From Calothrix sp. MO_192.B10 (lineage in GTDB: Bacteria > Cyanobacteriota > Cyanobacteriia > Cyanobacteriales > Nostocaceae), in contig JASJDS010000075.1 of assembly GCA_030065055.1 (NCBI GenBank), positions 1 to 64,000 on the forward strand: a DNA stretch of 64,000 bases, given 5' to 3'. The stretch's first letter is position 1, and each line of letters starts with the position of its first letter. Made by a program: the position numbers and the translations under genes. Positions 2,910 through 37,353 of this stretch are shown here, piece by piece. Under the pieces are notes generated by a model. It did no database searches. It was not told the origin of the DNA and saw nothing but the letters and a program-made list of their open reading frames with translations.

Positions 2910-2927
2910 GAAATTACCCATTACCAA

Positions 2928-8143: not shown

Positions 8144-8149
8144 CCTTCC

Positions 8150-22019: not shown

Positions 22020-22176
22020 TTATCATTGGTTATTTGTCTTTGTACTAGGGACGCAACCGACACAGGAGGGGAGATGACAAATTTTCTGATAACTTACAAA
22101 TAAGCAAAATTTGTTAACAGTGGACAGTAAAATATCCTATTTTTAATATATGTAGCCATATTGGGAGAACAATAAG

Positions 22177-22365
22177 ATGTCAATTATATTCCAAATAGCT
22201 TTATTAGGGCTGGTTCTGTTGTCTTTTGTCATGGTAATCGGGGTTCCCGTTGCCTATGCCAGTCCCCAAAATTGGGTTGAATCTAAAAAACTGTTGTGGG
22301 TTGGCTCTATTGCCTGGGTTATTTTAGTGGTTGTGGTTGGAATCTTAAACTTTTTCGTAGTTTAA
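22177..22365 (+). CDS. psbZ: Photosystem II protein PsbZ
   Basis: A 62-residue protein with two membrane spans, the exact size of PsbZ (Ycf9). The sequence [17 protein letters not shown], then [17 protein letters not shown] and VGILNFFVV, is characteristic. PsbZ is a small photosystem II core subunit at the edge with the antenna and stabilises the supercomplex. GGGAGAA lies upstream of the ATG. It is followed by ribH on the same strand. Confidence 0.95.
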
Positions 22366-22412
22366 GCGACTGCTTCAATCTAACCCTAGCAAATAGCATA
22401 GGAGCAGGAACA

Positions 22413-22527
22413 AAAGGATGAAGGATGAAGTATGTTCAGCATAGCCTCTCCCAAAGGCAAAGATAAAGTATGTACATACAGCTTTATCCTTGGAACTTCA
22501 GCCTTCCCAAGAAGGTCTTCATCCTTT
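22413..22527 (+). promoter_or_regulatory. Long-range paired leader upstream of ribH
   Basis: AAAGGATGAAG (22413-22423) pairs with CTTCATCCTTT (22517-22527), enclosing about 90 bases with further local stems, ending 57 bases before the ribH start. It does not match the FMN riboswitch core. It may be a repeat or a structured leader. Confidence 0.3.
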
Positions 22528-22584
22528 ACTTTCTCCAGAAGAAATGTATATTTGCAAGAAGTATAGTTGATAAGTGAAGCAGTC

Positions 22585-23151
22585 ATGGCAGTTTTTGAGG
22601 GCAGTTTTACTCAAGCAGAACCTTTACGGTTTGCCTTGGTTATTGGTCGATTTAATGACCTAGTTACCAACAAGCTTTTAGAAGGGTGTCAAGATTGCTT
22701 AAAACGTCACGGTATAGATATTAATCCCCAAGGTTCTCAAGTAGACTACGTCTGGGTTCCAGGTAGTTTTGAAGTTCCATTAGTGGCTCGACAGTTAGCA
22801 CTTTCCCAGCACTATGATGCCGTAATTTGCCTGGGTGCAGTTATCCGGGGACAAACACCCCATTTTGATTATGTTTCATCTGAAGTTGCCAAGGGAATTG
22901 CTGCTGCTGCCTTTCAAACTGGCGTACCTGTGATATTTGGGGTATTGACAGCAGACACCATGCAGCAAGCTTTAGAAAGGGCTGGCATCAAAAGCAATCA
23001 CGGTTGGGATTATGCCATGAATGCCCTAGAAATGGCTAGCTTAATGCGGAATTTACGCTCTAACTTAGGAGAGGCATACTCTGGGAGTTCTCAGTCTTTA
23101 CCTGCCGCAGCACTCAAAAGCGCAAATGTCGATAATCTTACCCCAGACTAA
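22585..23151 (+). CDS. ribH: 6,7-dimethyl-8-ribityllumazine synthase
   Basis: A 188-residue penultimate enzyme of riboflavin synthesis, which condenses the pyrimidinedione with dihydroxybutanone phosphate and forms icosahedral or pentameric shells. Signatures are [49 protein letters not shown] (active-site His in the H-F-D-Y-V run) and [19 protein letters not shown]. The in-frame GTG/ATA region upstream is rejected in favour of ATG at 22585 (MAVFEGSF). The C-terminal tail after residue 155 ([17 protein letters not shown]) is a low-complexity extension. Confidence 0.95.
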
Positions 23152-23532
23152 GAATAACATCACAAAGGCGTTACACCAATTTATGAACTAAGGGAATACC
23201 AATAAACACATATTTTGGCACAGGCAAGGATGCCTGTGCCACAAAAGTCCTGATTGCGCTATAGTTTTCCATTCCCTGTTCCCCATTTCCTATTCCCTGT
23301 CCCTCGTTACAAAGTTCTACCTTTCCTCGTTTCCTCGTTACAAGGTTCTACCTTGTAATGCATCCATTGGAGGCTCTGCCTTCTATTCACTTGTGGAGGC
23401 AACAGCCCTCCTTAAATGCATTTCCAGGCAGCAGCCCGGAAACGAGTTAGCCTGGAGTTGAGTTATTCCTGCTTTGTTCCTATTCCCTATTCCCTATTCC
23501 CCGTTCCCCAAAGTAAAATTTCCAAAAAACAG
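23152..23532. other. Repeat-rich region between ribH and tRNA-Gly
   Basis: It contains CACAGGCAAGGATGCCTGTG (23220-23239), TTCCCTATTCCC-type heptamers, and a block of alternating modules (GTTACAAGGTTCTACCTTGT, GGAGGCTCTGCC, GGAGGCAACAGCC, about 23305-23455) of the kind dispersed in Nostocales genomes. No gene is seen. Confidence 0.5.
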
Positions 23533-23561
23533 TTGACAAATCACTTTGAATTTGAGATATT
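23533..23561 (+). promoter_or_regulatory. Promoter of tRNA-Gly
   Basis: TTGACA (23533-23538), 17-base spacer, GATATT (23556-23561). The predicted transcription start is about 12 bases before the mature tRNA. Confidence 0.6.
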
Positions 23562-23579
23562 TATATTTAGCACTGCGAT

Positions 23580-23651
23580 GCGGGTATAGCTCAGTGGTAG
23601 AGCGTCACCTTGCCAAGGTGAATGTCGCGCGTTCGAATCGCGTTACCCGCT
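23580..23651 (+). tRNA. tRNA-Gly (anticodon GCC)
   Basis: A 72-nt cloverleaf: acceptor GCGGGTA/TACCCGC, D arm GCTC-AGTGGTA-GAGC, anticodon stem TCACC/GGTGA with loop TTGCCAA (GCC), T arm with TTCGAAT loop, and discriminator T. CCA is not encoded. The acceptor and anticodon stems pair completely. Confidence 0.97.
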
Positions 23652-24162
23652 TTCAATAAAGGCTAGTTGCTTGCTATACAATAGCATATAAGGGACTTGT
23701 AAATAAAAAACATCACAAAATTTGAAGGTGTTACAGTCATCCTTGTCTGTATCAGTGGACAGGCAAGGATGTCTGTAACACAATATGGGATAAATTATTT
23801 ATTGGTATTCCCTAATAGCCAATACCGAGCTTAATCTCAAAAATGGGAGTGGGATTTTCTTTTGTAGAAGGGTGTAGCTGGGCTTTTCTAAGAGTGGGTT
23901 GAGCTTGGATCACAATAATTGGAAATCCCAGATTTTTTTATAATTATATTAAGTTGGGCTAATACTCTTGAATATTTTTTGAACACAAACAGATTTTTGC
24001 TGCCCAATTGAGGGAAAATGTATTTGGAGGCTAAATACTTACCCACACTTATTAATTCTATAAAGGAAATTTATAGGATAATAATTAACCTCCGATGCAT
24101 CTACGAGGGGATGGAATCCTCGCAAGCTGTTAATAGAAACTGCTGAAATTGTTAGAACGCTT
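23652..24162. other. Intergenic region downstream of tRNA-Gly
   Basis: About 500 bases without a gene. A palindrome pair (CATCCTTGTCTGTATC / GGACAGGCAAGGATG, about 23738-23770) belongs to the GGCAAGGATGCC family. The rest is AT-rich with no clear structure. No integrase or attachment duplication of the tRNA end is seen. Confidence 0.45.
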
Positions 24163-24570
24163 GTGCAATCTCAAAAAGCCCAAAAATTAGACTTCCATCG
24201 GGAATATCCTTGTCCTTGTCGTCGTCGGGGACAATTAATTCCCATTACCCTGACAGAAGCATTTGGCTGCGATCGCTGTCAGCAAATATTTGTAGTTGAA
24301 GAAAACGGTTATGTACTAGAACAACTTTCCAGCACCTATCCCTACAAACGAGCTTGGCGTTGGAATGGTTCTAGTTGGCAAGTTGCTCATTCTCGGCTAG
24401 GAGAAAGCTACATGCCAGTAGCGCTGGGGATTATTTTTGTGTTAGTGATTATATGGTTACCATTAGCACTCAGACTGGCAAGTGGTTCCAGTATAATAGC
24501 TTGGGCATTAGTGGCGGTATTATTAGCAATTTTACCAGCACTTATGGTCTGGCTTACTTACAGGCGTTAA
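24163..24570 (+). CDS. Conserved cyanobacterial zinc-ribbon membrane protein (unknown function)
   Basis: A 135-residue protein, probably from GTG at 24163. The N-terminal soluble part has a CPCRRRG ... GCDRCQQ pair of cysteine motifs suggesting a zinc ribbon. It is followed by two hydrophobic segments (VALGIIFVLVIIWLPLAL and IIAWALVAVLLAILPALM) separated by a short loop. The gene stops four bases before proA, so the two are probably co-transcribed. I do not recognise a named family. Confidence 0.65.
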   Translation: MQSQKAQKLDFHREYPCPCRRRGQLIPITLTEAFGCDRCQQIFVVEENGYVLEQLSSTYPYKRAWRWNGSSWQVAHSRLGESYMPVALGIIFVLVIIWLPLALRLASGSSIIAWALVAVLLAILPALMVWLTYRR

Positions 24571-24574
24571 CCAA

Positions 24575-25840
24575 ATGACAGTAGATGCTTTTGATTATAG
24601 TCCGGAAACAATTGCGATCGCCCAACGTGCGGATCAAGCTGCCTTTAAGCTGGGAGTAACAAAGGGAACAGAACGTAGTCGTGCTGTACTGGCAATGGCT
24701 GAAGCGCTCAAATTCTCCTTTGACGATATTCTGGAGGCAAATACCTTGGATCTGGAAGCCAGTCGAGAAATGGCTGTACCAGAATTAATTTTGGATTGGC
24801 TAAAGTTGACTCCCCAAAGATTGGAGTCAACTGTAGAAATTCTCCAGCGCTTAGGGGAGTTATCAGATCCCCTGCGACGAGTCAGAAGTGCTGACTACCA
24901 ATTGCAGGACTCCCAGACTTACTCGCAATTAATGCCTTTGGGAGTGATTGCCTTTGTTTACGAGGCATTTCCGGAATTAGCTGCGATTGCGGCTGGTTTA
25001 TGTATTAAAACAGGTAATAGTCTGATTCTCAAAGGAAGTACGGAAGCTAGCCATTCTAATGCAGCAATTGCCGATGCACTCACCAATGCTGTGATTGAAG
25101 CAGGTTTACCAGTAGGTTGCTTACAATTAATCACAGAAGAACATGGGGGTTCGATTCGAGATTTAGTTACCCAAGACGAGTATTTAAATTTAGTGATTCC
25201 CTACGGACGTTCTAGCTTAGTACAGCAGGTGATGCGACAGTCTACTTGTCCGGTTTTAAAGTCAGCAATGGGTAATTGCTACCTTTATTGGTCTCTAAAT
25301 GGCAGCTTAGAGATGGTGCAATGGATAATTATTGATAGCCATGAAAGCGCACCCGATCCGGTAAATGCCATTGAAAAAGTATTGGTTCATCGACAAGCAA
25401 ATCCCTCTTCCTTAGCAATTTTGTGCAATCATTTGCAGGAGGAAGGATTTGTAATCAAAGGAGATGCCGAACTTCTAGAAGCTTTTCCCCAGTTGCAGCT
25501 AGTCCAGAATGGAGAATGGGAAAGTGCCTATTTAACCAAGACAGTAGCTTTTAAACTGGTGGATAGTTTAGAGGAGGCGATCGACTCGATTAATCGCTAT
25601 AGCAGCGGTCATGCAGACTGTATTGTCACCGATTCTTATCAAGAGAGTCGGCAATTTGCCTTGGGTGTCAACAGTGCTTCTACGTATATTAATGCTTCCC
25701 CGCGTTTTAGTCGCAACCCATCACGGGGTGATTCGATCTTTTTGGGTATGTCTAATCAAAAAGGTCATCGTCGGGGATTAATTAATCTGGAAAGCTTGAC
25801 TACTGTGAAGCATATTGTCCAGGGAAATGGGCGATTTTAG
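24575..25840 (+). CDS. proA: Gamma-glutamyl phosphate reductase
   Basis: A 421-residue enzyme of the aldehyde dehydrogenase superfamily. It reduces gamma-glutamyl phosphate with NADPH to glutamate semialdehyde, the second step of proline synthesis. Family segments are present: LDLEASREMAVPELILDWL, MPLGVIAFVYEAFPELAA, LKGSTEASHSNAAIADAL, VIPYGRSSLVQQVM and the C-terminal SASTYINASPRFS. The usual active-site Cys region appears as STCPVLKSAMGNCYLYW. Some cyanobacteria encode two ProA-like proteins; this one is divergent enough that the alternative paralogue role should be kept in mind. Confidence 0.85.
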   Translation: MTVDAFDYSPETIAIAQRADQAAFKLGVTKGTERSRAVLAMAEALKFSFDDILEANTLDLEASREMAVPELILDWLKLTPQRLESTVEILQRLGELSDPLRRVRSADYQLQDSQTYSQLMPLGVIAFVYEAFPELAAIAAGLCIKTGNSLILKGSTEASHSNAAIADALTNAVIEAGLPVGCLQLITEEHGGSIRDLVTQDEYLNLVIPYGRSSLVQQVMRQSTCPVLKSAMGNCYLYWSLNGSLEMVQWIIIDSHESAPDPVNAIEKVLVHRQANPSSLAILCNHLQEEGFVIKGDAELLEAFPQLQLVQNGEWESAYLTKTVAFKLVDSLEEAIDSINRYSSGHADCIVTDSYQESRQFALGVNSASTYINASPRFSRNPSRGDSIFLGMSNQKGHRRGLINLESLTTVKHIVQGNGRF

Positions 25841-26028
25841 AGATTAAGAAACAAATGATAAGTATTCATAATTTGGGTTAATTAGGGAAAACAATCATTT
25901 GCAATAAATCTTTTCATTAGCTGCGGCAATGAAGTACAATGAGCCTGCACTGTAATTATGCATACTCAATTGTATAAATTCAGATTGCATAGAAATTAGA
26001 TATTCACATTCTTTAATTAACACCTTTC

Positions 26029-27129
26029 ATGGTCAAGACACAAACGAGAGTAACTTTTGCCAAAAGCATTGGTTTTAGGAAAGAGTTAAATAAACGGGTT
26101 GATGCTTATTTCAAATCTGAAAATATTTCTCCCCGAGATAATTTGGCAATGTATTTGAAAACAGCAATTATTTTTGGATGGGTGATTTCTGCTTGGAGTT
26201 TTACTCTCTTTGGTCCACCAATAATATGGATGAAAGTAGTTGGATGCATCATTTTAGGATTTGCCATTGCTGGTGTTGGTTTTAGCGTCGGTCATGATGC
26301 TAACCATGGAGGTTATTCTGGTAAGCAATGGGTAAATTATGTTTTTGGTTTAACTTATGATGTAATTGGTCTATCTAGTTATTTATGGAAGTTTCGCCAT
26401 AATTCTCTACATCATATTTACACTAATATTTTGGAACATGATGTAGAAATCCATGGGGATGGTTTGGTGCGCATGTCTCCATTTATGGAGCATAAATGGT
26501 TTCATCAATTTCAACACATTTTAATTTCTTTTATTTACGCTATAGTACCATTATATTGGTCTGTATCAGATGTACATCTGATTCTCTTCAAACGTAAATA
26601 TCACGAACATTCTATTCCTACTACCAAACCAGTAGAAATGGTGATTTTGCTGGGTGGTAAATTCCTTTGGCTGGCGATATTTTTGTTTATTCCTATGGCA
26701 GTAGGCTATACTCCTGTTGAGGCAATTACGGGATTTTTGATTGTATACATGTCTTATGGAGTGCTAATTTGTAATATCTTCATGTTGGCTCATGTTTTAG
26801 AACCAGCAGAATTCATTGAACCAAATCCCAATTCAAATACTGTTGATGATGAATGGGCAATTGCTCAAGTTAAAACCACAGTTGATTTTGCACCCCACAA
26901 TTGGTTTTTGAATTGGTATATTGGTGGATTAAATTATCAAACTGTGCATCATTTATTTCCCCATGTTTGTCATATTCATTATCCGAAAATAGCGCCAATT
27001 TTAGCAGAAGTATGTGAAGAATTTGGGGTGAAATATAATGTTTATCCAAGCTTTGTAGGAGCATTAGCTGCTAACTATCGTTGGTTGAAAATTATGGGAG
27101 AAAAACCCCAGGAAGTTATTGCATCTTAA
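26029..27129 (+). CDS. desD: Acyl-lipid desaturase, DesD (delta-6)-like
   Basis: A 366-residue integral membrane fatty-acid desaturase without a cytochrome b5 domain. The three histidine boxes that bind the di-iron centre are visible: GHDANHGG, RHNSLHHIYTN and NYQTVHHLFPH (the first box of the last motif begins with Q, as in front-end desaturases). The N-terminus FRKELNKRVDAYF and the segment HDVEIHGDGLVRMSPFMEH closely resemble the DesD delta-6 desaturase remembered from Synechocystis. The enzyme inserts double bonds in membrane glycerolipid acyl chains, often induced by cold. It is followed by a good terminator. Confidence 0.85.
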   Translation: MVKTQTRVTFAKSIGFRKELNKRVDAYFKSENISPRDNLAMYLKTAIIFGWVISAWSFTLFGPPIIWMKVVGCIILGFAIAGVGFSVGHDANHGGYSGKQWVNYVFGLTYDVIGLSSYLWKFRHNSLHHIYTNILEHDVEIHGDGLVRMSPFMEHKWFHQFQHILISFIYAIVPLYWSVSDVHLILFKRKYHEHSIPTTKPVEMVILLGGKFLWLAIFLFIPMAVGYTPVEAITGFLIVYMSYGVLICNIFMLAHVLEPAEFIEPNPNSNTVDDEWAIAQVKTTVDFAPHNWFLNWYIGGLNYQTVHHLFPHVCHIHYPKIAPILAEVCEEFGVKYNVYPSFVGALAANYRWLKIMGEKPQEVIAS

Positions 27130-27148
27130 TTAAGATTGTCTAAATTTT

Positions 27149-27183
27149 AGTAGGGGTTTAGCAATGCTAAACCCCTACTTTTT
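27149..27183 (+). terminator. Rho-independent terminator after desD
   Basis: The 14-bp stem AGTAGGGGTTTAGC / GCTAAACCCCTACT with a 3-base loop is followed by TTTT, 20 bases after the desD stop. A degenerate relative lies at about 27297-27327 at the end of the TIR-WD40 gene. Confidence 0.75.
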
Positions 27184-27313
27184 GCTGTTCCCTTTACACC
27201 AATTTAAATTATTCAGGACTTACGATAGTGTCACAGTAGATAGGGTTTTGGTGCGTTAGACTAAAGTCATAACGCACCCTACAGATACTAAATTTTAGTA
27301 GGGTTTAGAAATG

Positions 27314-30300
27314 CTAACCCCCTACATTTTTACAGAGATCGCGATCGCTTGTTGGGGCGTTATGTTTGAGATAGCCTCCCATTACAGCACAAGCATCCTG
27401 CATTAGCTTGCCGAACTCTAAATCTGCTAAATTCCATAGAATCACCGTTTTGTCCTCACTGGCAGAAGCAAGAGTCTTGCCGTCAGGGCTAAAAGCAACG
27501 CTGTAGACATAATTTTGATGCCGCTTGAGAGTTTTGGGTTGTTTATTTTCAAGGTTCCAGAATTTGATAGTCTTGTCAGTACTGGCAGAAGCAATGGTCT
27601 TGCCGTCATGGCTGAAAGCAACCCCCAAGACCATACTTTCATGCCCCTTGAGAGTTTTCGGTTCTGGTTCTTTACTTTCAAGGTTCCAGAGTTTGATAGT
27701 CTTGTCCCTACTGGCAGAAGCAATAGTTTTGCCATCAGGGCTGAAGGCGATGCTGTTGACCCAATCTTCATGCCCGTTGAGAGTTTTCGGTTCTGTTTCC
27801 TGCCCTTGGAGGTTCCAGAGTTTGATAGTCTTGTCCCTACTGGCAGAAGCAATAGTTTTGCCATCAGGGCTGAAGGCGATGCTGTTGACCCAATCTTTAT
27901 GCCCCTTAATGGTTTTGAGTTCTTGACCTTGGAGGTTCCAGAGTTTGATAGTCTTGTCCTTACTGGCAGAAGCAATAGTTTTGCCATCAGGGCTGAGGGC
28001 GACACTGCTGACCCAATCTTCATGACCCTTAAGGGTTTTGAGTTCTTGACCTTGGAGGTTCCAGAGTTTGATAGTCTTGTCCCTACTGGCAGAAGCAATA
28101 GTTTTGCCATCAGGGCTGAAGACAACGCTGTTGACTACATCTTTATGGCCCTTCCCTAGGGTTGTGAGTACTTGACCTTGGAGGTTCCAGAGTTTGATAG
28201 TATTGTCTCTACTGGCAGAGGCAATGGTCTTGCCATCAGGGCTGAAGGCGACGCTGTTTACCGCATCTTTATGCCTCTTGAGAGTTTTCGCTTCTCTACC
28301 TTGCTTGTTCCAGATTTTGATAGTATTGTCTCTACTGGCAGAAGCAATAGTTTTGCCGTCAGGGCTAAAGGCGACGCTGTTGACTGTATTTTCATGCCCA
28401 AAGAGGGTTGTGAGTACTTGACCTTGGAGGTTCCACAGTTTAATGGTATTGTCCCTACTGGCAGAGGCAATGGTCTTGCCGTCAGGGCTGAAGGCGACGC
28501 TTATGACATCATCTTCATGCCCCTTGTTCGCGTAGCGTTCCGAAGGAAGGGTTTTGAGTACTCGACCTTGGAGGTTCCAGAGTTTGATGGTATTGTCATC
28601 ACTGGCAGAAGCAATGATCTTGCTGTCAGGGCTAAAGGTGATGGTGTTGACCACACTTCTATGCCCAAAGACGGTTCTCCGAAAGTCCGTCTTCAGTTCT
28701 TTACCTTGAAGATTCCAAAGTTTGATGGTATTATCATCACTAGCAGCAGCAATAATCTTGCCGTCAGGGCTGAAGGCGACGCTGTTGACATAATTTTCCT
28801 TCCCCTTGAGGGTTTTGAATTCTTTCCCTTCTTGAAGATTCCAGAATTTGATGGTATTGTCATTACTGACAGAAGCAATTGTCTTGCCATCAGGGGTGAA
28901 GGCGACGCTGGAAACCACATCTGTATGCCCCTTGAGGGTTTTGAGTAGTTGACCTTGGAGGTTCCAGAGTTTGATGGTTTTGTCATTACTGGCAGAAGCA
29001 ATGGTCTTACCGTCAGGGGTGAAGGCGACGCTGGAAACCACATCTTTATGCCCTCTGAGGGTTTTGAGTTCTTTCCCTTCTTGAAGATTCCAGAGTTTGA
29101 TGGTATTGTCATCACTGGCAGAAGCAATGGTCTTACCGTCAGGGCTGAAGGCGATGCTGTTGACCGTACTTTTATGCTTATTCAGCCGATTGTGCTCTCT
29201 AAATCCTTCCCCATCAACTGCCTGATGCAAGACTGTCGAAATTAAATTTTTAGTTTTGGGTGTATCTATCCCAAATTTTTTACGTAGGTTCTCTGCCTTA
29301 ATAGCTTCAAGCAGGGCATCAAACTTGACATTTTCCTGGGAGAGTAGCAATGAAAATTGACTTAAGGAATTAAGTTGAGCTTTTTGAGCATGTTCGGCTT
29401 GTTTCTGAGCATATTCGGCTTGTTTCTGAGCATATTCGGCTTGTTTCTGAGCATATTCGGCTTCTTGAGTCCGCTTTACAGCAACCCCAGCAAAGGCAAC
29501 AGCAGCTACGAATCCTATACTGATAATAACAAGAGAGAACTTTTGTCGCCTAGCATTTTTTTTCTGTTCTGCGAGTCTTGCTTCAGCTTCTTTTGTCTTC
29601 TCCTCCTGTAAACGCAGCATTTGGGCTTGTCGGCGTTTTTCTGATTCTTCTACCATTTTAATGGCATTTTGACTCGCTTCAATAAATGCCTTTTGAAGAG
29701 AAGTTGCGGTAGGTTTTTTCTTTTGTTCTTCCGTTTCCTGTAACCAATTTTGAGCAATTAAAAATTCACTACCCCGCAACAATAAGTCATCACTTTTATC
29801 TTTATACTCCCACTCCAATGCCCGATGCAACCATTTGCTATGACTGCGGACATGTTCTCTATCAGTATCTAAGGTTCTCACCAATTGATTAAAATTGGCA
29901 TTAAAATCCCCTTCATGACCATTAAAATCAATCCATTGCACCTTCGCCAATTCCGGATGCAAATCTGCTGTATTTACTTCCCGATGTAGCACTGTCACAA
30001 AGCGTTTATTCAAAGAAGCAGCATACTCCACCTCATCCTTACAGTAAGGGGAATTTACTGACCTTGGTGAGAGAATAAATAGAAAGTTATCACAGGCATT
30101 AATTCCTTGATAAATCTCCTGCTGAAAATCACTCCCCGATGCAATACTTTCCTGGTCAAACCAAGTCGTTTTTCCCTGTATCTGTAAGCTATCATTTAGC
30201 TTTCTCGCCAAATCCGAGTCAGCGCGAGAATAGGAAATAAACACATCCAACGACTCTAATGGTGGTTGCCGGAGACTTTCATTAATAAATTCTGATTGTA

Positions 30301-31561
30301 ACTGTGTGGGTGGATGCTGTACCCTTTTCTGTGCCAGTTTCAACCAAGTTTCGGCACTCCGTAAATTATACCCCCGCAAGAGAATGGTAGGATTATTTTG
30401 TTGCTGCTGCCACTTCAGCGCTTTAGTCAATAGAATTTTATGCTCGTTGTAATAAGCTGCATCCTGATATAAGATATTCAATAATTGGCTTTCATCGACG
30501 AGATAATCGTCTTCCTTGAGATTGTCCGTAAGGTCGATATAATGCAAACACCGCAGCACTGAGGGCAACTGCATTTCCTGGGTTTCTCGTACCAATATGG
30601 GAATAATCCGCTTATTCAGCGACACAGCTAAATCTAATTCTTGCTGACAGAAAGTAGACTTTACTGAGTCAGGAGAAAGCAAATAAACCAGATTATCCGC
30701 TTGTTCAATTCCTCGGTTAATCGCTGCTGCAAATGCTTCCCCAGTTTGAATATCTGTGGTATTCGTCCAAACCGTAATCCCCTCTCGTCTCAAACTCCTG
30801 CGAATCTTCTCCATCGTCTCCCTATCCTCATCAGCATAGGAGAGGAACACCTGAGTCATCAAGTTATTAGCATTCTTGATACTTTCGGTGATGTATTCGC
30901 AATGCAAATCACTGGGAAAACAAGGTGCTTGTTCATCTTGAAAGCGGATTTTTAACCAAGCTTCTGCTTGTTGTTTCTCTTCCCCAGTTAACAAGTATCT
31001 CGTTTGCTTTTGATTCCTCTCCCATTCTAAGGCTTTGGTTAAAAGATGAGTATGGTTTTCGACATAATCGTCATGATGTTTTAATAATGCAATTAATCCC
31101 GCCAAAGACTTATCAAAATCATCAATTCCCTCTCGAAAATACACCCAATTAATCTTACCAATGGTCGGGTGCATATTTTGAAAAGAGGTATGTTTACCTT
31201 TATTTTTATATCTTTCCCACTCCTGATCCGTCCCATTCGGGTTTCTTTGTTGCCAAGTTTCCCGACTGATTTGCTCAACATGTAATAAAGGAATAATCCG
31301 TTTATTATGCTTAATCGCTAACTCAATTTCTTTGCCACAATAGGGCGAATTTACCGAATGTGGTGCAATGATAAACAGGAAATGACATGCCTTTTCGATA
31401 CCATCATCAATTTGATTCTGAAAATCTACCCCTAGAGGGATGTCATTAAAGTCAAACCACACCCTGAAATCTTGTGCGTGCAAGTGAGCTTGAAGTTTGG
31501 TTGCAAACTCTTTACTGTCAGCTCGTCCATAAGAGATGAAAGCATCGAAAAAGCTAGTCAT
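27314..31561 (-). CDS. Triple TIR - transmembrane - 14-blade WD40 protein
   Basis: A 1415-residue protein, start ATG at 31561 (the TTG one codon earlier is not needed). Three TIR domains (about residues 5-150, 238-375, 438-575) begin DAFISYGRADS, QVFLSYADEDR and DVFISYSRADS. Each has a conserved acidic motif (CGKEIELA, CQQELDLA, CKDEVEYA) where NADase TIRs place the catalytic Glu, and each is followed by a similar helical linker (ALEWE...LLTGEE...AEAWL). Around residue 690 one membrane span (LVIISIGFVAAVAFAGVAV) is followed by four AEYAQKQ-type heptads, then 14 WD40 repeats (about 790-1390), enough for two seven-bladed propellers. Blades are very similar to each other (SPDGKTIASASRDNTIKLWN type). 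The protein probably senses through the propellers and signals or kills through TIR activity; this is inference. Confidence 0.88.
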   Translation of the reverse strand: MTSFFDAFISYGRADSKEFATKLQAHLHAQDFRVWFDFNDIPLGVDFQNQIDDGIEKACHFLFIIAPHSVNSPYCGKEIELAIKHNKRIIPLLHVEQISRETWQQRNPNGTDQEWERYKNKGKHTSFQNMHPTIGKINWVYFREGIDDFDKSLAGLIALLKHHDDYVENHTHLLTKALEWERNQKQTRYLLTGEEKQQAEAWLKIRFQDEQAPCFPSDLHCEYITESIKNANNLMTQVFLSYADEDRETMEKIRRSLRREGITVWTNTTDIQTGEAFAAAINRGIEQADNLVYLLSPDSVKSTFCQQELDLAVSLNKRIIPILVRETQEMQLPSVLRCLHYIDLTDNLKEDDYLVDESQLLNILYQDAAYYNEHKILLTKALKWQQQQNNPTILLRGYNLRSAETWLKLAQKRVQHPPTQLQSEFINESLRQPPLESLDVFISYSRADSDLARKLNDSLQIQGKTTWFDQESIASGSDFQQEIYQGINACDNFLFILSPRSVNSPYCKDEVEYAASLNKRFVTVLHREVNTADLHPELAKVQWIDFNGHEGDFNANFNQLVRTLDTDREHVRSHSKWLHRALEWEYKDKSDDLLLRGSEFLIAQNWLQETEEQKKKPTATSLQKAFIEASQNAIKMVEESEKRRQAQMLRLQEEKTKEAEARLAEQKKNARRQKFSLVIISIGFVAAVAFAGVAVKRTQEAEYAQKQAEYAQKQAEYAQKQAEHAQKAQLNSLSQFSLLLSQENVKFDALLEAIKAENLRKKFGIDTPKTKNLISTVLHQAVDGEGFREHNRLNKHKSTVNSIAFSPDGKTIASASDDNTIKLWNLQEGKELKTLRGHKDVVSSVAFTPDGKTIASASNDKTIKLWNLQGQLLKTLKGHTDVVSSVAFTPDGKTIASVSNDNTIKFWNLQEGKEFKTLKGKENYVNSVAFSPDGKIIAAASDDNTIKLWNLQGKELKTDFRRTVFGHRSVVNTITFSPDSKIIASASDDNTIKLWNLQGRVLKTLPSERYANKGHEDDVISVAFSPDGKTIASASRDNTIKLWNLQGQVLTTLFGHENTVNSVAFSPDGKTIASASRDNTIKIWNKQGREAKTLKRHKDAVNSVAFSPDGKTIASASRDNTIKLWNLQGQVLTTLGKGHKDVVNSVVFSPDGKTIASASRDKTIKLWNLQGQELKTLKGHEDWVSSVALSPDGKTIASASKDKTIKLWNLQGQELKTIKGHKDWVNSIAFSPDGKTIASASRDKTIKLWNLQGQETEPKTLNGHEDWVNSIAFSPDGKTIASASRDKTIKLWNLESKEPEPKTLKGHESMVLGVAFSHDGKTIASASTDKTIKFWNLENKQPKTLKRHQNYVYSVAFSPDGKTLASASEDKTVILWNLADLEFGKLMQDACAVMGGYLKHNAPTSDRDLCKNVGG

Positions 31562-31691
31562 CAACTGCTACCCCGTTCCTAACAAATTAAATTTATGGTT
31601 TATTTGTTAACAAGTAATTATACTGATAATCTTACCTGATAATCGAGTATAAAACATAATTTTTAGGTCAGCGATCGCAAAAATTTCAACC

Positions 31692-32029
31692 CTATTTACT
31701 GTTGATGTCTTTACAGAGGTTGCGATCGCTTTCTGGGGCATTGTGCTTCAGATAATCCTCCACTTGAACACTAGTACAAGTCGGCGGAAATACAGCAACG
31801 GTTTATAAAACGTCAAAGCTAGAGAACACAATACTTTTGACTTTTGACTTTTGACTTTTGACTTCCGCGCAGCGGTACTAGCATCCTGGATTAGCTTGTC
31901 TAATTTTAAATCTGCTAAATTCCATAGAATCACCGTTTTGTCATCACTAGCTGAGGCAAGAGTCTTACCATCAGAGCTAAAACTAACCCTAGTCACCCGT
32001 GCATTGTGACCCCTTCTATTAATTCTCAT
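31692..32029 (-). pseudogene. Truncated WD40 gene tail with internal repeat insertion
   Basis: On the minus strand a WD40 blade (GHNARVTRVSFSSDGKTLAS, then TVILWNLADLKLDKLIQDA) resembles the last blade of the neighbouring gene. It then runs into AAAGTCA heptamer-derived residues (SKVKSQKSKV). Beyond the insertion the old C-terminus continues as VQVEDYLKHNAPESDRNLCK and stops at 31692-31694, matching the neighbour's GGYLKHNAPTSDRDLCK. It is the 3' relic of a second TIR/WD40-type gene. The 5' part is lost at about 32025, where a plus-strand frame begins. Confidence 0.8.
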
Positions 32030-32227
32030 CTAGATGATTTTAGTAGCTTGATAGAACAAATCAGGAATGATAATATTTACACGTTAACTTTAGCACCATC
32101 AAAAATACTGTTCTTAGATCCGGTTAAAAGTGATGATTACCAAAGGAAAGGTATAAAGCTAATGACTTCGTTTGAGGCGTTGCTGATTGAAAGTATGAAA
32201 TGTATAAACTTGTTAACTGAAAAATGA
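32006..32227 (+). CDS. Small ORF coupled to the SLATT-like gene, possibly 5'-truncated
   Basis: A 73-residue frame (GTG at 32006; internal ATG at 32162). The sequence LIEQIRNDNIYTLTLAPSKI and LMTSFEALLIESMKCINLL is not recognised. Its stop overlaps the next ATG (ATGA), so it is probably translated with the SLATT-like gene. Its beginning coincides with the breakpoint of the WD40 relic, so it may be the C-terminal part of a gene whose start was lost. Confidence 0.4.
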   Translation: MTPSINSHLDDFSSLIEQIRNDNIYTLTLAPSKILFLDPVKSDDYQRKGIKLMTSFEALLIESMKCINLLTEK

Positions 32228-33144
32228 TTCAAACTAAATATATTAAGTCTATTAAAAACACAGATTTTCCTGCTCTATTCAACGCCGCAGACCAAGCTTC
32301 TTTATCAGCACAAAAAAAGTACCTACTTCTTGTCAAATCAGATTTAGCAATTCTGGTTGTTAGTGCCATAATGTCTTCTTGGAGTCAGGGTCCTGACTCA
32401 AATAGTCAGGGTCTTGACTATTTAGCTATTCTCGGCGCGTTCTTGGCAACTGTGGGTGTATTTATCACAGCTGAACTTTCTTCATCCAAGCTTGAACGGA
32501 TTTGGTTTAGCGCACGTGCTGTAGCTGAGTCTATCAAAAGTCTTTCATGGCGTTATATGATAGGGTCTGAACCATTTGCTTCTTTTTTAAATGACCAAGA
32601 ATTGGATGAAACATTTATTGAGGAAATCAACAAAGTTTTAAGACAAAAGCAAGACATTGCCTCAGAATTAAGCACCGATGTCTCCACTATGCCGCAAATA
32701 AGTGAAAAAATGAGAGAGATAAGAGCGCTATCTGTCAGTGAACGCCGAAATATCTATCTTGAACATCGGATCAAGAAGCAGCGTAATTGGTATAGTACAA
32801 AAGCTACCTACAACCGCAAAGCAAGAAACAAATGGTTTAACGCCATTATAGTTTGCCAAGCACTTTCAATTATAGCCGCTATTTTACACGCAATACCTCC
32901 CAAACTTCCTGTGAATGGTACTGGCTTTTTTGCCGGTCTAGCTACGGCTTTTTTATCTTGGTTACAGATTAAGCGACACCAAGACCTAAGTCAATCCTAT
33001 GCCCTTGCTGCTCAGGAGTTAGGGTTTATTGAAAGTTTAGGTGATCATATTACGTTAGATGAGAAATTATCAAATTTTGTTGCCCAAGCTGAAAAAGCTA
33101 TATCTAGAGAACACACCCTCTGGATAGTTAAACGTAATGACTGA
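32224..33144 (+). CDS. DUF4231/SLATT-like membrane protein (predicted pore-type effector)
   Basis: A 306-residue protein with two hydrophobic hairpins: about residues 38-85 (LAILVVSAIMSSW ... LAILGAFLATVGVFITAEL) and about 213-258 (WFNAIIVCQALSIIAAILHA ... FFAGLATAFLSWLQ), separated by a charged helical region (EHRIKKQRNWYSTKATYN). This arrangement fits DUF4231 and the wider SLATT group (SMODS- and SLOG-associating 2TM effectors), which are predicted to form membrane pores triggered by nucleotide signals. A SLOG-domain gene lies immediately beyond on the opposite strand. The family name is by pattern, not by search. Confidence 0.7.
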   Translation: MIQTKYIKSIKNTDFPALFNAADQASLSAQKKYLLLVKSDLAILVVSAIMSSWSQGPDSNSQGLDYLAILGAFLATVGVFITAELSSSKLERIWFSARAVAESIKSLSWRYMIGSEPFASFLNDQELDETFIEEINKVLRQKQDIASELSTDVSTMPQISEKMREIRALSVSERRNIYLEHRIKKQRNWYSTKATYNRKARNKWFNAIIVCQALSIIAAILHAIPPKLPVNGTGFFAGLATAFLSWLQIKRHQDLSQSYALAAQELGFIESLGDHITLDEKLSNFVAQAEKAISREHTLWIVKRND

Positions 33145-33205
33145 GGATAGGTTATGAGTTCATCGGGTGACCAACCTTTCTTAAGATTTTTATTTTTAAC
33201 TAATA

Positions 33206-33463
33206 GTTACGCGATGTGCAGGTGAAACTGTCAAGAAATCATTGTCAGTTAGGACGTATATTTGTAGATGTGGATGTACTTCACAAAGAGATCACAATGC
33301 AGCATTGAACATTTTAAATCTTGCACGGCAAGCTACCTTCAACGCAGAGGCGAAGTAATGCTTCAGGAGTAGCAGTCACTACTCTACTTGGGGCAACCCT
33401 AGTAGAGCAAACTGCTAGGATGATTGAAGAATCTGCGCGGCTTTAGCCCGCAGAGTGTCAATT
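33206..33463 (+). mobile_element. IS200/IS605-family remnant: tnpB 3' fragment and right end
   Basis: Bases 33211-33358 encode the C-terminal zinc ribbon of TnpB, partly decayed (RCAGETVKKSLSVRTYICRC, then GCTSQRDHNAALNILNLARQ, stop at 33356). Downstream at about 33430-33462 is the typical right-end hairpin of these elements (CTGCGCGGCTTTAGCCCGCAG) followed by GTGTCAA. The rest of tnpB and tnpA are missing. It lies between the SLATT-like and SLOG genes. Confidence 0.85.
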
Positions 33464-33464
33464 C

Positions 33465-34226
33465 CTAGATAAGTTCCAAGAGCGTTAACTTTTGAGCAGA
33501 AAGCATCTCTTTAATCAATTGAGTTAGGATATCAAAACTCTCCTTGAGGTCAATTGCTTGCACCAGCCCAGAAGCAACTAACTCCTTTGCTTGGTGATCG
33601 CTAGCTTCCCCACGCAGTGCCGCTGTCAGTGTATCAGCAAATCGTCCAGTCCCAGCAACAGCAAGTACTGGTCGATTCGCTTTTAGATTCTCTGACACAT
33701 CCTTCTTGGAAATCTCCCCACCGTTAACTAGCACTGCGACCGATGGCGCACCGTTTGCCAGTACAGTTGTGACATCAGCCAACCAAGGCGATTCATCACC
33801 CCAGTTAGAGCCAGGAATTAGCACAAAATGACTGTGATGCGGCTCCAATGCTGCAACCTCTTCAGGGGGGATTTGATTGGGAAGAGCTACCTTTCCAACT
33901 GGAGTTACACCAATCAAGGGAAATGTGGCTGATATCTCGGCACGAGCTTGACCCATCATCTGCATCACACCAAAATCAGTGCCGCCATCCACAACAGACG
34001 CACCTAGTTCTTCAGCCACCGGAGCCAGCACTTTTACAAATAACGAGCGCAGACGGCTTAAATCAGCCTCGCTCATCTTACCTGCACCACCTACAACTAC
34101 TAGGACGGGACGCGGACTGTGAAGTTCTAGTTTGCCCATAGCAGTGGACAACTCCTTTGGGGACTTAACTCGAATAGCAGATGCCGTTAGTCCGTTTGAA
34201 GTGGCAATTTTAAAGGGTTTTTCCAT
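33465..34226 (-). CDS. SLOG-domain protein, TRPM-type (LSDAT_prok)
   Basis: A 253-residue soluble protein with a Rossmann-like SLOG fold. Nucleotide-binding signatures are PVLVVVGGAGKMSEADL at about residue 40, GASVVDGGTDFGVMQMMGQA at about residue 78 and PHHSHFVLIPGSNWGDESPW at about residue 128, matching prokaryotic relatives of the TRPM channel N-terminal domain. Later motifs are PSVAVLVNGGEISKKDV and PVLAVAGTGRFADTL. SLOG domains bind or process NAD- and ADP-ribose-derived nucleotides and are predicted sensors for SLATT effectors. It converges with the SLATT-like gene, separated by an IS605 relic. Confidence 0.78.
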   Translation of the reverse strand: MEKPFKIATSNGLTASAIRVKSPKELSTAMGKLELHSPRPVLVVVGGAGKMSEADLSRLRSLFVKVLAPVAEELGASVVDGGTDFGVMQMMGQARAEISATFPLIGVTPVGKVALPNQIPPEEVAALEPHHSHFVLIPGSNWGDESPWLADVTTVLANGAPSVAVLVNGGEISKKDVSENLKANRPVLAVAGTGRFADTLTAALRGEASDHQAKELVASGLVQAIDLKESFDILTQLIKEMLSAQKLTLLELI

Positions 34227-34612
34227 TTAGTTAAATATGTTACTATTCAGTTAATTTATTTACCTGGAAGGTATTTGGAGAGAGGAGAAGGAAAAATCAC
34301 ATATTCAAGTCAATAAACATTATGATGGCTACTTTTATATATATCTACTATATACATCTACCATCAGTGATATTCCTTAAAGATAAGTAGGTGGGCGTTA
34401 AAAAATCAATCTATGTAACAAAATGTACAATCAACGAACAGCTTAGAAATAGGTTATAGGGTTTCCGGATTTAGAAATATGCTAACGTATATGCGTAGTG
34501 CTATATTTTGCGTTGTATTTGTAAATACGCAGATCCCCGACTTTTTGGAAAAGTCGGGGATCTTGTTGATCACAAATGGTTTAAGATTGGTACAGGAAGC
34601 GATCGCTCATTA
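34227..34612. other. Intergenic region with terminator-like hairpin
   Basis: AT-rich; it contains the probable promoter of the SLOG gene and, at 34532-34562, the GATCCCCGACTTTTT hairpin that lies 50 bases after the sigma factor stop. No gene is seen. Confidence 0.45.
34532..34562. repeat. GATCCCCGACTTT hairpin, short form
   Basis: GATCCCCGACTTTTT pairs with AAAAGTCGGGGATC, same family as 16694-16724. Its place after the sigma factor gene suits a terminator role. Confidence 0.65.
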
Positions 34613-35569
34613 CTAACTAGCCAAATATTCATTCATACTAGACTGGGTTCTCCGCAGCTTTTTTAAGGCTTCTCGCTCAATTTGTCGCACGCGCTCCCGG
34701 CTAATATTGAGAATTTCACCTATTTTTGCCAGGGTTAGGGGTTGTCCATCACTCAAACCATAGCGCAGAGATAAAACTTCTTTCTGTTGGGGTGTCAGCT
34801 TATCCATTAAGCGTTCTACTTCATTAGATAAGGACGACTGGATGGCGAAGTCTTCAGGGGAAGAGTTGGGATCTTCTAACATTTCCCCTAACTCGGTGTC
34901 ATAATTATCTCCCAGCCTCAAGTCTAAGGATAATGGAACCCTGGACTTCTCCAAATACTCCCTCACTTGCTGGGGAGTCAATGATAATTCTGTTGCTAAC
35001 TCAGCCATACTGGGAGCGCGCCCCAAATTCTGGGACATTTGACGTTGGGCTTTTTTGATTTTGTTTAATTTCTCGGTAATATGAATTGGTAGGCGAATGG
35101 TTCTACCTTTTTCTGCGATCGCTCTAGTAATAGCTTGACGTATCCACCAGTAAGCGTAGGTAGAAAATCGATAGCCTTTGCTGGGGTCAAATTTTTCCAC
35201 ACCCCGCTGCATACCAATACTACCTTCCTGAATTAAATCCAGCAAATCGACGTTACGCTTGATGTATTTTTTCGCCACTGATACCACTAGCCGCAAATTG
35301 GCTTCTACCATTTTACGCTTGGCTATTTCACCATCAGCGATCGCTCGTTTTAATTCCGTTACTTCTAATTTAGCCGCTTGTGACCATTCTTCCCAACTTG
35401 GTTCATGTCCCAACTCATTGGCAAGAGATTCCTTGGTTTCATACAATGCAGTTGCCTTTTGCACCTGCTTACCATATTGAATTTCTTCCTCATGGGTTAA
35501 AAGTGGTACTCGACCTATCTCACGCAGATAAGTCCGCACGAGGTCTGTAGGTGTATTCACGGTCTTCAT
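34613..35569 (-). CDS. Group 2 sigma-70 factor (SigB/SigD-type)
   Basis: A 318-residue sigma factor that directs RNA polymerase core to promoters. Region 1.2 ([20 protein letters not shown]), region 2 ([36 protein letters not shown], the -10 recognition and melting helix), region 3 (INITEKL-like [19 protein letters not shown]) and region 4 ([20 protein letters not shown], -35 recognition) are all present. The short N-terminus without region 1.1 places it in group 2, the non-essential stress and nutrient sigmas of cyanobacteria. The exact letter name cannot be assigned. Confidence 0.9.
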
Positions 35570-36140
35570 AGTGCGACTCTTGGAATAATGATAAGTTTAG
35601 CGATCGGGTATTTCATCTAAGGAGGCTGCTATTGGTTAATCACCAATCTAGGGAGCAATCCTGTTTGTAATTAGTCATCTTTATGGATATCCAGTTTGCC
35701 AGTGAATGATAATCAAATTAGATTTTTAATTGATAAAAAATAGAATTTATAGTTATTTGACTGGTTTTGCAAGTATCCTGAGTTAGATATCAAAGGATAA
35801 TATTCAAATTTCTTATGTAAATATTTAATAATTGTAACATTTATGATTTTTGTCTGCCTACTAATCTAGAGATAGATTTTTGAGAATTTCCCTCATGTAG
35901 AAGGGATTATGGTCATTATAGAGAGGACTATATTGTCATGACTGGCAAGTTGCTTTTTCTCAGTTTTGTTTACATAACTCAATCATAAATGTAATTTCGT
36001 TGGGATTTGTCAGGCTTTATTTTTTCTTTCGAGTGTTTTGGGAGGAAAGAGTGAGGGAGATGTGGGAGTGATGAAGTAGGGGGTGGGGTTTCCCTACCCT
36101 ATAGGAGGTTATAATAAAATCTTTGTTCCAACCTGGGGGA
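35570..36140. other. Intergenic region upstream of the sigma gene
   Basis: AT-rich with no clear gene. A short repeat (GAGTGAGGGAGATGTGGGAGTG, with AGGGGGTGGGGTTTCCCTACCC, about 36047-36101) is a degenerate member of the GGAGTGA / GGGGTTTCCCC family. Sigma gene control elements are probably in 35570-35750 but are not obvious. Confidence 0.4.
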
Positions 36141-36398
36141 TTAGTGGCAATGTTTTGATGTATTATTTTTAATGCTTGTTTTGTATAAATCATGCGATCG
36201 CAAATATTTTATTACAAAGCCGATTAAATTGAGTTGGGGTAAGCTAGGAGAAACGATTAAGTTATTACCAGTAAATGGGATCAATAGCAATGCTACGTCT
36301 CTACCAGGGTATGTGTTGCGATCATTTATTAAATCAGTATTAGGATACCACTTGACAAATTCTTCGTAAGTTATAGATTTAGGTAAAGCATGAGTCAT
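36141..36398 (-). pseudogene. Internally deleted Uma2 gene remnant
   Basis: The 85-codon frame starts like Uma2 proteins (MTHALPKSITYEEFVKWYPN) but jumps to what looks like the family's C-terminal stretch (FTGNNLIVSPSLPQLNLIG). The middle, including the PD-(D/E)XK core, is missing. The tail after that is unrelated. It is best seen as a relic with a deletion of roughly 350-400 bases, next to an intact Uma2 gene. Confidence 0.6.
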
Positions 36399-36450
36399 TT
36401 AAGTTACCATTAGCTTGGTGGATTGTGCAACCAAACAGTTGTCCGGCTGT

Positions 36451-37110: not shown

Positions 37111-37246
37111 GGCTGGGAATTAAGATGGTTATCTACATAGCATTTATTCTAACGTTGGCAATGGGGTAAGCGAAGCTATTCAGTCAGAAGGAAATCGCTT
37201 TACTAGTGGTGCGCTGCATTAATTTTTACGAGTCGTAGGTGTGAGC

Positions 37247-37310
37247 GATCCCCGACTTCTATCCTAGGAATCGCTACCATGTGCGGATATTTCTTCAGAA
37301 GTCGGGGATC
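37247..37310. repeat. 64-bp GATCCCCGACTTC element, long form copy 1
   Basis: It begins GATCCCCGACTTCTATCC and ends GAAGTCGGGGATC, with about 40 bases between the arms. Only two or so bases differ from 52506-52569, so the two copies are recent. It lies 44 bases beyond the carB stop and may terminate carB transcripts. Confidence 0.8.
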
Positions 37311-37353
37311 TGTTAGAACTAATGAAACTTATTTACAATCAGTAAATTTACTT

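What the first reader, a model, noticed from the sequence alone, without database searches (positions are those of the whole stretch)
27314..29200. Fourteen almost identical WD40 blades suggest concerted evolution of a recognition propeller
Blades 6-12 share nearly whole cores ([20 protein letters not shown]) with differences confined to a few positions. High internal identity is known in fungal HET-D/HET-E incompatibility NLR proteins, where blades reshuffle to vary recognition. Fourteen blades would give exactly two propellers.
Basis: partly seen in the sequence, partly recalled or inferred. Interest (0 to 1): 0.65.

Follow-up and report, generated by a model that had tools for sequence, protein, structure and literature searches.

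The report
Membrane TIR receptor with twin propellers
A cyanobacterial gene encodes three TIR signalling domains joined through a membrane segment to fourteen similar WD40 blades, which probably form two propellers that sense something outside the cell; relatives usually keep fourteen blades while the binding surface, and sometimes the whole array, changes fast.

Summary
Fourteen WD40 blades are there (27422-29203), but they are 42% of a 1415-aa ORF (27314-31561, minus): three TIR domains, a TM helix, a heptad stalk, 14 blades, a Cys-pair tail. "Almost identical" is too strong: core identity is 48-91%, median 73%. HET-like evolution is partly borne out. Against it: 14 blades in 56 of 68 related proteins, and blades kept in order between this gene's closest relatives, apart from local homogenisation. 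For it: in some relatives the whole array has turned over beside a conserved TIR part, with blade number changed in a few; and the four codons selected in HET-D/E show excess amino-acid change in 8 of 13 alignable close pairs. Neighbours include a TRPM-type SLOG gene and SLATT or patatin genes. I read it as a membrane TIR receptor with outward propellers (charge bias 57:2, blades nearly Cys-free, conserved Cys pair, CHASE2 in the same slot elsewhere), probably signalling through an NAD-derived molecule to SLOG-gated effectors. Topology and function are inferred. Caveat: the contig looks chimeric near 31-33 kb; an intact gene with identical blades exists in MAG MO_167.B47.

The parts
27314..31561 (-). 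TIR x3 - TM - stalk - WD40 x14 gene, 1415 aa, ATG start (the listed ORF begins 3 nt earlier at TTG)
31274..31540 (-). TIR domain 1 (Pfam TIR_2 match); putative catalytic Glu E78 invariant in 22 aligned sequences
30509..30850 (-). TIR domain 2; putative catalytic Glu E308 invariant in 22 aligned sequences
29879..30244 (-). TIR domain 3; putative catalytic Glu E510 in at least 90% of 22 aligned sequences
29477..29539 (-). predicted transmembrane helix, basic on the TIR side
   Evidence: hydropathy and charge; placed by hand on the sequence
29381..29464 (-). stalk with 7-aa (21-nt) tandem repeats between TM and propellers; the alignment shows a 21-aa gap here in C138 and G033B
27422..29203 (-). 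fourteen WD40 blades, predicted two 7-bladed propellers
27314..27421 (-). C-terminal tail with conserved Cys pair (C-x14-24-C)
31690..32029 (-). relic of the 3' end of another TIR-WD40 gene (last blade plus tail), split by about 102 bp at ~31775-31876 that G033 lacks
32224..33144 (+). SLATT_3 + SLATT_1 protein (predicted 2TM effector), on the opposite strand
   Evidence: Pfam
33465..34226 (-). SLOG protein of the TRPM (LSDAT_prok) type
   Evidence: Pfam
31128..31184 (.). likely position of a chimeric assembly join inside the TIR1 end of the gene (a join near 33178 is not excluded)

Best explanation
A membrane-anchored TIR receptor. SHOWN by computation: three TIR domains that keep the putative catalytic glutamate, one hydrophobic segment, a heptad stalk, 14 blades with propeller fold, a family norm of 14 blades with a fast-changing propeller surface in many close pairs and whole-array turnover in some, and recurrent linkage to a SLOG gene of the TRPM type and to SLATT or patatin genes. 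INFERRED: the TIR domains are cytoplasmic and the propellers extracytoplasmic. Ligand binding to the propeller top faces, for example by a phage or a neighbouring cell, would cluster the TIR domains. They would hydrolyse NAD+ and make an ADP-ribose-type signal, the SLOG protein would bind it, and the SLATT or patatin partner would damage the membrane and stop the infected or foreign-contacted cell. Folding favours two closed 7-blade rings. Specificity changes by substitution at d-a loop and b-c turn codons, including those selected in fungal HET-D/E, and in some lineages by re-amplification or replacement of the array.
For: Architecture. Topology: strong hydrophobic segment in 64 of 68 proteins, net charge more positive on the TIR side in 57 of those and less in 2; blade Cys 0.10% of residues against 1.20% in the TIR part, tail Cys pair in 57 of 68. 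In the same genome, of 16 WD40 ORFs without TIR-x3 that I examined, 6 have 0-1 blade Cys (two with a signal-like N-terminus, four with a Cys-pair tail), 8 have 14-18 and 2 have 3-4. A CHASE2-type region replaces WD40 in 20 of 78 loci by a profile made from one protein, which is itself a Pfam CHASE2 hit; that CHASE2 is an extracytoplasmic sensor is recalled (a title so naming such domains is in the reference list shown). Partners: SLOG, patatin, TIR in that order on one strand in G000:C138, G033:C110, G068 and L102, L106, L110 (the L102 SLOG ORF is a 130-aa piece); SLOG, SLATT, TIR in G129:C112, G092 and L172. Of 149 genomes 18 have SLOG, 23 the TIR match, 15 both (hypergeometric 2e-12, not corrected for kinship); 10 of 19 SLOG places lie within 12 kb of a TIR match. 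Selection and number.
Against: No experiment shows export, NADase activity or defence. Charge downstream of the TM is often positive too. In one search the tail pattern also matched L021 (4 blade Cys) and L022 (16), and L018 has only a weak hydrophobic segment (1.29). G129a and G129b lack the tail pair; three of the 68 proteins have 6-7 blade Cys. Among 78 TIR loci SLOG is in 16, SLATT in 17, patatin in 5 (many loci end at contig ends). In the window SLATT lies on the opposite strand. Three of 18 SLOG genomes lack the TIR match, and 8 of 23 TIR genomes lack SLOG. Five of 13 pairs show no excess at the four codons, among them C138/G033B from this species pair; pooled, change at those codons stays below the synonymous rate (256.5/1689 against 95.5/426), and columns 2, 5 and 6 vary as much. 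The 13 pairs were chosen among alignable arrays. No PADLOC model fits the SLOG or SLATT proteins. The TIR profile finds no PDB chain by sequence at 1e-10.
Confidence: 0.5

Rival explanations
1. Cytosolic NLR-like sensor: the hydrophobic segment only tethers the protein, the propellers stay in the cytoplasm and detect phage products there, as WD40 domains of NLR proteins are thought to do.
For: Eight of the 16 WD40 ORFs examined have no TM next to the blades and 14-18 blade Cys; the two scanned carry NACHT or NB-ARC. WD40 domains are usually cytoplasmic (general knowledge).
Against: The TIR proteins have nearly Cys-free blades and a tail pair; charge bias 57 to 2; CHASE2-type regions occupy the same slot.
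Confidence: 0.25
2. HET-D/E-like concerted evolution: blades are repeatedly re-amplified and exchanged within and between genes to vary recognition.
For: Dolichospermum L168 vs L171: N-terminal dS 0.18, every blade examined nearest within its own array, array periods 42 and 41 aa, 13 against at least 11 blades. Symploca L112 vs L114 alike. Twelve of 33 pairs with N-terminal dS below 0.7 have blade dS above 1.2 or saturated, including window vs C138. The four arrays of highest internal identity (L109, L168, L171, L112) are counted at 10-13 blades (L109 holds a masked stretch and L168 may be under-counted). Inner blades of window and C152 are locally homogenised.
Against: 14 blades in 56 of 68; positional orthology in C138/G033B and the outer blades of window/C152; 12 of the 13 chosen pairs have equal counts. 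Draft assemblies can collapse near-identical repeats.
Confidence: 0.3
3. Leftover of recent blade amplification: blades look alike because the array was amplified not long ago and is drifting apart, with no diversifying selection in the window gene; the role could be development or stress signalling rather than defence.
For: Highly repetitive WD40 proteins are common in cyanobacteria (PMC5587647, PMC9218822; passages read). Internal identity is a continuum of 31-88%. C138/G033B shows no excess at surface codons.
Against: Window vs C152: four-codon dN 0.301 against 0.087 elsewhere at similar dS (Fisher 6.7e-8). Linkage to SLOG, SLATT and patatin, which are conflict-type partners.
Confidence: 0.15
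4. The window ORF itself is an assembly artefact: a contaminant contig joined to the host contig, probably inside TIR1.
For: Window 1-9000, 19290-27129 and 23848-31184 match G033 at ~100%, while G000 has its own copies of the tested core block at 76-79% on C287 and C253 and window 33179-39500 is closest to G002, 92-97% in its main matches. C152 starts at codon 135, next to where the window departs from G033 at codon 126.
Against: G033 carries an uninterrupted copy with identical blades, so the gene and its blades are real; only codons 1-126 and the upstream context are in doubt. A real transfer of the block is not excluded.
Confidence: 0.8

Closest known systems
Highly repetitive cyanobacterial WD40 proteins (WRAP / Npun_R6612, PDB 2YMU)
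   Same: 14 blades; best sequence hit among solved structures (E 2.8e-231) and best fold hit
   Different: According to PMC9218822 WRAP is attached to a STAND ATPase domain; here three TIR domains and a TM segment precede the blades
Fungal HET-D/HET-E (NWD) incompatibility NLR proteins
   Same: Internally similar WD40 blades; change at codons 7, 9, 25 and 27 (PMC1805685, passages read); array turnover in some relatives
   Different: No HET-NACHT arrangement; number and order conserved in the window gene's closest relatives; a TM segment is present
Thoeris (TIR plus SLOG-bearing effector) and TIR/SLOG/SLATT systems predicted by Aravind and colleagues
   Same: TIR protein linked to a SLOG gene and a membrane effector (PMC9503650 and PMC7159879, passages read; the original 2015 paper was not held)
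   Different: SLOG is a separate TRPM-type (LSDAT) gene, the effector slot holds SLATT or patatin, and the TIR protein itself carries a large sensor behind a TM
nSTAND1-WD40 proteins of the same genome
   Same: WD40 blades with 0-1 Cys and a Cys-pair tail after a hydrophobic segment (L014, L015, L018, L023; segment weak in L018)
   Different: STAND NTPase (with CHAT or TPR matches) in place of three TIR domains
Animal Toll-like receptors (analogy only)
   Same: Repeat ectodomain, one TM, TIR inside, if the inferred topology is right
   Different: Reversed order, propellers instead of LRRs, putatively enzymatic TIRs; no claim of descent

Membership tests
Highly repetitive 14-blade WD40 (HR-WD40/WRAP-like) | 14 WD40 blades | tested here: met
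Highly repetitive 14-blade WD40 (HR-WD40/WRAP-like) | median internal blade identity above 60% (cut-off of PMC9218822) | tested here: met
   median 73% in the 33-column core
HET-D/E (NWD) NLR | HET and NACHT domains before the WD40 repeats | tested here: not met
   residues 1-640 are three TIR domains; of 65 Pfam families that matched, only the best 25 were shown
HET-D/E (NWD) NLR | polymorphic blade number | tested here: inconclusive
   14 in 56 of 68 and equal in 12 of 13 chosen pairs, but 12 vs 14 and 13 vs 11 counted in L112/L114 and L171/L168; no strain panel was available
HET-D/E (NWD) NLR | selection at codons 7, 9, 25 and 27 | tested here: inconclusive
   excess in 8 of 13 pairs including window vs C152, absent in 5; dN above dS at these codons in few pairs
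HET-D/E (NWD) NLR | concerted evolution of blades within and between genes | tested here: inconclusive
   local in the window gene, whole-array in L168/L171 and L112/L114, absent in C138/G033B; exchange between genes not tested
Thoeris | TIR protein | tested here: met
   TIR_2 x3; PADLOC ThsB models hit; ThsB_TIR Pfam hit in relatives
Thoeris | ThsA effector (as recalled, an effector fused to a SLOG or Macro sensor) | tested here: not met
   the SLOG gene is stand-alone LSDAT; no PADLOC hit for the SLOG or SLATT proteins
Thoeris | signal made on infection, anti-phage activity | not testable with these tools
   needs experiment
Type II membrane receptor topology | ectodomain outside, N-terminus inside | tested here: inconclusive
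   indirect only: charge bias, Cys depletion, Cys pair, CHASE2 slot

The most novel reading that the evidence does not exclude
A bacterial cell-surface TIR receptor class in cyanobacteria: extracytoplasmic twin WD40 propellers, usually of fixed size, whose binding face is diversified at the codons that fungi use for allorecognition and whose whole array can be replaced; a single TM; three NADase TIR domains inside; and a TRPM-type SLOG protein as the receiver that switches SLATT pores or patatin phospholipase. In layout it would be a bacterial counterpart of Toll-like receptor signalling, with an exchangeable sensor (WD40 or CHASE2).
Probability: 0.35. Interest if true: 0.85.

Novelty: new variant of a known kind. 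Interest (0 to 1): 0.6.

Why it matters
Bacterial TIR defence is known mostly with intracellular sensors (recalled). A transmembrane TIR protein with a changing ectodomain would let surface recognition in bacteria be studied directly, and the family offers a natural test of how a repeat receptor diversifies: by surface substitution in a frame of constant size in some lineages, by array turnover in others. The partner genes give a testable signal path from TIR to SLOG to a membrane effector. The Cys contrast between WD40 classes in one genome could be a simple marker for sorting unassigned cyanobacterial WD40 proteins by compartment.

Tried and rejected
Rejected: an exact two-fold duplication of a 7-blade unit (identity falls smoothly with lag; lag 7 is 75.3%, no peak). 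Not tested: a diversity-generating retroelement (no search was run); exchange of blades between genes.

How samples were chosen: the genome scan confirmed 258 stretches and kept the best 80, giving 78 loci, so counts of 78 concern the nearest relatives. The 68 proteins are those of the 78 loci with enough WD40 hits plus 11 from the first set; they are not independent (for example window and L097, G146 genes and L158/L163). Direct blade counts give 48 of 68 with 14, spacing-corrected 56 of 68. The 13 pairs were picked by hand from the 70 pairs processed (of 75 candidates), keeping arrays that align; 12 of the 33 pairs with N-terminal dS below 0.7 have blade dS above 1.2 or saturated and were left out. 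L109 holds a masked stretch that reads X, so the strong L112/L109 result is less secure. Window/C152 and C138/G033B are treated as orthologue pairs between G033 and G000, inferred from matching dS (0.28, 0.26) and the contig break. The 16 WD40 ORFs come from 16 of the 18 regions (the other two hold the TIR genes) and are only part of this genome's WD40 genes (one search scored 150 of 379 candidates).

Corrections: the ORF caller had a bug that misplaced some ORFs; one search replaces it. The Pfam calls for neighbours used only proteins that translated without stops.

Literature: passages only were read of PMC2873952, PMC1805685, PMC4986451, PMC5587647, PMC9218822, PMC9503650, PMC7159879, PMC8195603 and PMC10907252; other papers were seen as search listings. 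The 2015 paper that I recall as defining SLOG/SLATT was not held. That I know of no paper on this TIR-SLOG-patatin/SLATT receptor rests, in an open-access library only.

Full report
WHAT IS THERE. The minus-strand ORF 27314-31561 encodes 1415 aa. Pfam finds three TIR_2 stretches and 14 WD40 stretches. Residues 1-640 model with pLDDT 88.7 and pTM 0.82; the nearest solved structures are TIR domains of a Toll-related receptor, MyD88, SARM1 and SPARTA, although a sequence profile of this region finds no PDB chain at 1e-10. The glutamate of the C-x-x-E motif in each TIR is invariant (E78, E308) or at least 90% conserved (E510) in 22 aligned sequences; that it is the catalytic residue is recalled from SARM1 (an E642A entry appears). 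A hydrophobic helix, a stalk with 7-aa repeats and 14 blades follow. The blade region models at pLDDT 91.8 with 55 strands; the best PDB match by sequence and by fold is 2YMU, a 14-blade cyanobacterial protein (PMC5587647, passages), with the mutual orientation of the two rings left open (rmsd 16.4 over the whole length).

IS IT THE HOST'S GENE? In the stretches tested (1-9000, 19290-27129, 23848-31184) the window matches genome G033 (MAG MO_167.B47) at ~100%. G000 holds its own 76-79% identical copies of the tested core block elsewhere, and window 33179-39500 is closest to G002 (92-97% in its main matches). The contig is therefore probably a chimera, though a real transfer is not excluded. 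Between 31185 and 33178 the window is about 98% identical to G033, so the join lies near 31.2 kb or near 33.2 kb. The truncated gene on C152 begins at codon 135, next to where the window departs from G033 (codon 126), which suggests that C152 is the rest of G000's own gene. The blades are unaffected: G033 has an uninterrupted gene with identical blades.

BLADE EVOLUTION. The window gene, C152, C138 and G033B each have 14 blades in the same order. C138 vs G033B: 13 of 14 and 14 of 14 blades are nearest to their positional partner. Window vs C152: 6 of 14 window blades (1, 4, 5, 6, 13, 14) are nearest to their partner; 2, 3, 7 and 9-12 are nearest within their own array, 8 to C152 blade 6; pooled dS for blades 9-12 is 0.17 and 0.23 within arrays, 0.29 between partners. 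Among 68 TIR-WD40 proteins 48 have 14 blades by direct count and 56 after spacing correction, while median internal identity runs from 31 to 88%. This norm fits a need for two closed seven-blade rings. It has exceptions, and they matter: the four arrays of highest internal identity (L109, L168, L171, L112) are counted at 10, 11, 13 and 12. In Dolichospermum L168 vs L171 the TIR parts are close (dS 0.18) but all blades examined (10 and 13) are nearest within their own array, 32-40% of bases away from the other array; in Symploca L112 vs L114 all 10 L112 blades examined are nearest within their own array. Of 33 pairs with N-terminal dS below 0.7, 12 have blade dS above 1.2 or saturated. So whole-array turnover does occur in the family. 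It is not seen in the window gene's nearest relatives. Repeat collapse in draft assemblies could explain part of the number differences, not the turnover.

SURFACE CHANGE. Paoletti and co-workers (PMC1805685, passages) report selection at codons 7, 9, 25 and 27 of the HET-D/E repeat. I mapped these to the window blades by their conserved neighbours (codons 8 and 26); in the model 7, 25 and 27 fall in loops and 9 near the start of strand a in all 14 blades. In 13 alignable close pairs nonsynonymous change at the four codons is 256.5/1689 against 702/11900 elsewhere, with similar synonymous change (95.5/426 and 690/3454). Only 63 of 40920 four-column sets do as well. Eight pairs show the excess at p < 0.05 and five do not. 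The clearest is Planktothricoides L163 vs G146d (dN 0.187, dS 0.016 at the four codons; 0.028 and 0.071 elsewhere; p 1e-9). Window vs C152 has 0.301 and 0.383 against 0.087 and 0.300 (p 7e-8). Against this: pooled change at the four codons stays below the synonymous rate; columns 2, 5 and 6 of the d-a loop change as much; C138/G033B shows nothing.

WHERE ARE THE PROPELLERS? Of 68 proteins 64 have a strong hydrophobic segment between TIR3 and blade 1; among those, charge is more positive on the TIR side in 57 and less in 2. Blades have 0.10% Cys against 1.20% in the TIR part, and 57 of 68 tails carry C-x14-24-C. In the same genome I examined 16 other WD40 ORFs. Six have 0-1 blade Cys: two with a signal-like N-terminus, four with a Cys-pair tail behind a hydrophobic segment (weak in L018). 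Eight have 14-18 and two have 3-4. The tail pattern also matched L021 and L022, which are not Cys-poor. The two Cys-rich ones scanned are NACHT and NB-ARC proteins, the four Cys-tail ones nSTAND1 proteins. In 20 of the 78 loci a CHASE2-type region replaces the WD40 part (Pfam-confirmed for one protein). All this points to propellers outside and TIRs inside, but it is indirect.

NEIGHBOURS. In C138, G033:C110 and G068 the gene is third in a same-strand row SLOG (LSDAT_prok), patatin, TIR; L102, L106 and L110 repeat it. In G129:C112, G092 and L172 SLATT-type proteins take the patatin position. In the window the SLOG gene lies at 33465-34226, a double-SLATT gene at 32224-33144 on the other strand, and a relic of another TIR-WD40 gene at 31690-32029. 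SLOG occurs in 18 of 149 related genomes and the TIR match in 23 (some of them single-TIR matches); 15 have both (genomes are related, so the p-value is only a guide). Of 19 SLOG places 10 lie within 12 kb of a TIR match. In the 78 loci (1.26 Mb) SLOG is present in 16, SLATT in 17, patatin in 5; from 19 places in 149 genomes of several Mb each one would expect, roughly, one SLOG per 50 Mb. The patatin matches PADLOC phospholipase effector models.

MECHANISM. The best reading is a ligand-gated TIR receptor whose product is received by the SLOG protein, which turns on a membrane effector. The TIR-SLOG-SLATT logic exists in the literature as prediction (PMC9503650, PMC7159879, passages). What I add is the receptor architecture, its probable topology, the norm of 14 blades, the HET-like surface change and the array turnover in some relatives. 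None of the functional steps was tested.

VERDICT. I file it as a new variant of a known kind.

Noticed in passing
window 1-33178: In the stretches tested the left part of the contig matches another MAG (MO_167.B47) at ~98-100%, while the genome has its own diverged copies of the tested core genes; probable chimeric contig or contamination.
   Followed up: partly
L163 10001-14908 and L067 1898-6811: Planktothricoides pair whose 14-blade arrays differ mainly at codons 7, 9, 25 and 27: the cleanest diversifying-selection case seen.
   Followed up: yes
L168 9998-14125 and L171 3900-7850: Dolichospermum pair with close TIR parts but wholly different WD40 arrays (periods 42 and 41 aa): array replacement or re-amplification.
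   Followed up: partly
L117, L122, L131, L135, L145, L148 and others (20 of 78 loci): Same triple-TIR N-terminus with a CHASE2-type region in place of WD40.
   Followed up: partly
L014, L015, L018, L023 versus L012, L013, L016, L017, L020, L022, L024, L025: Two WD40 classes in one genome: blades almost without Cys plus a tail Cys pair (nSTAND1), and blades with 14-18 Cys (two scanned: NACHT, NB-ARC).
   Followed up: partly
L021 2547-5537: ORF with WD40 blades near its start and TIR match(es) towards its other end, the reverse order of the gene studied here.
   Followed up: no
window 31690-32029: Relic 3' end of a second TIR-WD40 gene, closer to the C138/G033B/C152 tails than to the window gene's own, interrupted by about 102 bp absent from G033.
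   Followed up: partly
L077 226-1407 and L057 9639-10820: IS605 OrfB/TnpB-type gene (Pfam-scanned in L077; clustered with it in L057) beside the SLOG gene in G002 and beyond SLATT in G033, near where synteny breaks.
   Followed up: no
L080 6632-8827: DUF4231/SLATT protein with Peptidase_C39-like and GH19-like matches, upstream of a TIR-WD40 gene.
   Followed up: no
L092 5165-6979: Lipase_3 gene directly upstream of a TIR-WD40 gene, possibly another effector in the patatin/SLATT slot.
   Followed up: no
L101, L105, L107, L158: Tandem TIR-WD40 genes (two or three in a row).
   Followed up: partly
window ~23300-23450, ~23690-23816 and ~20670-20705: Short interspersed repeats with many copies in related genomes.
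   Followed up: no
window 1-128: 128-bp repeat listed at more than 30 places in G033, several at contig ends.
   Followed up: no
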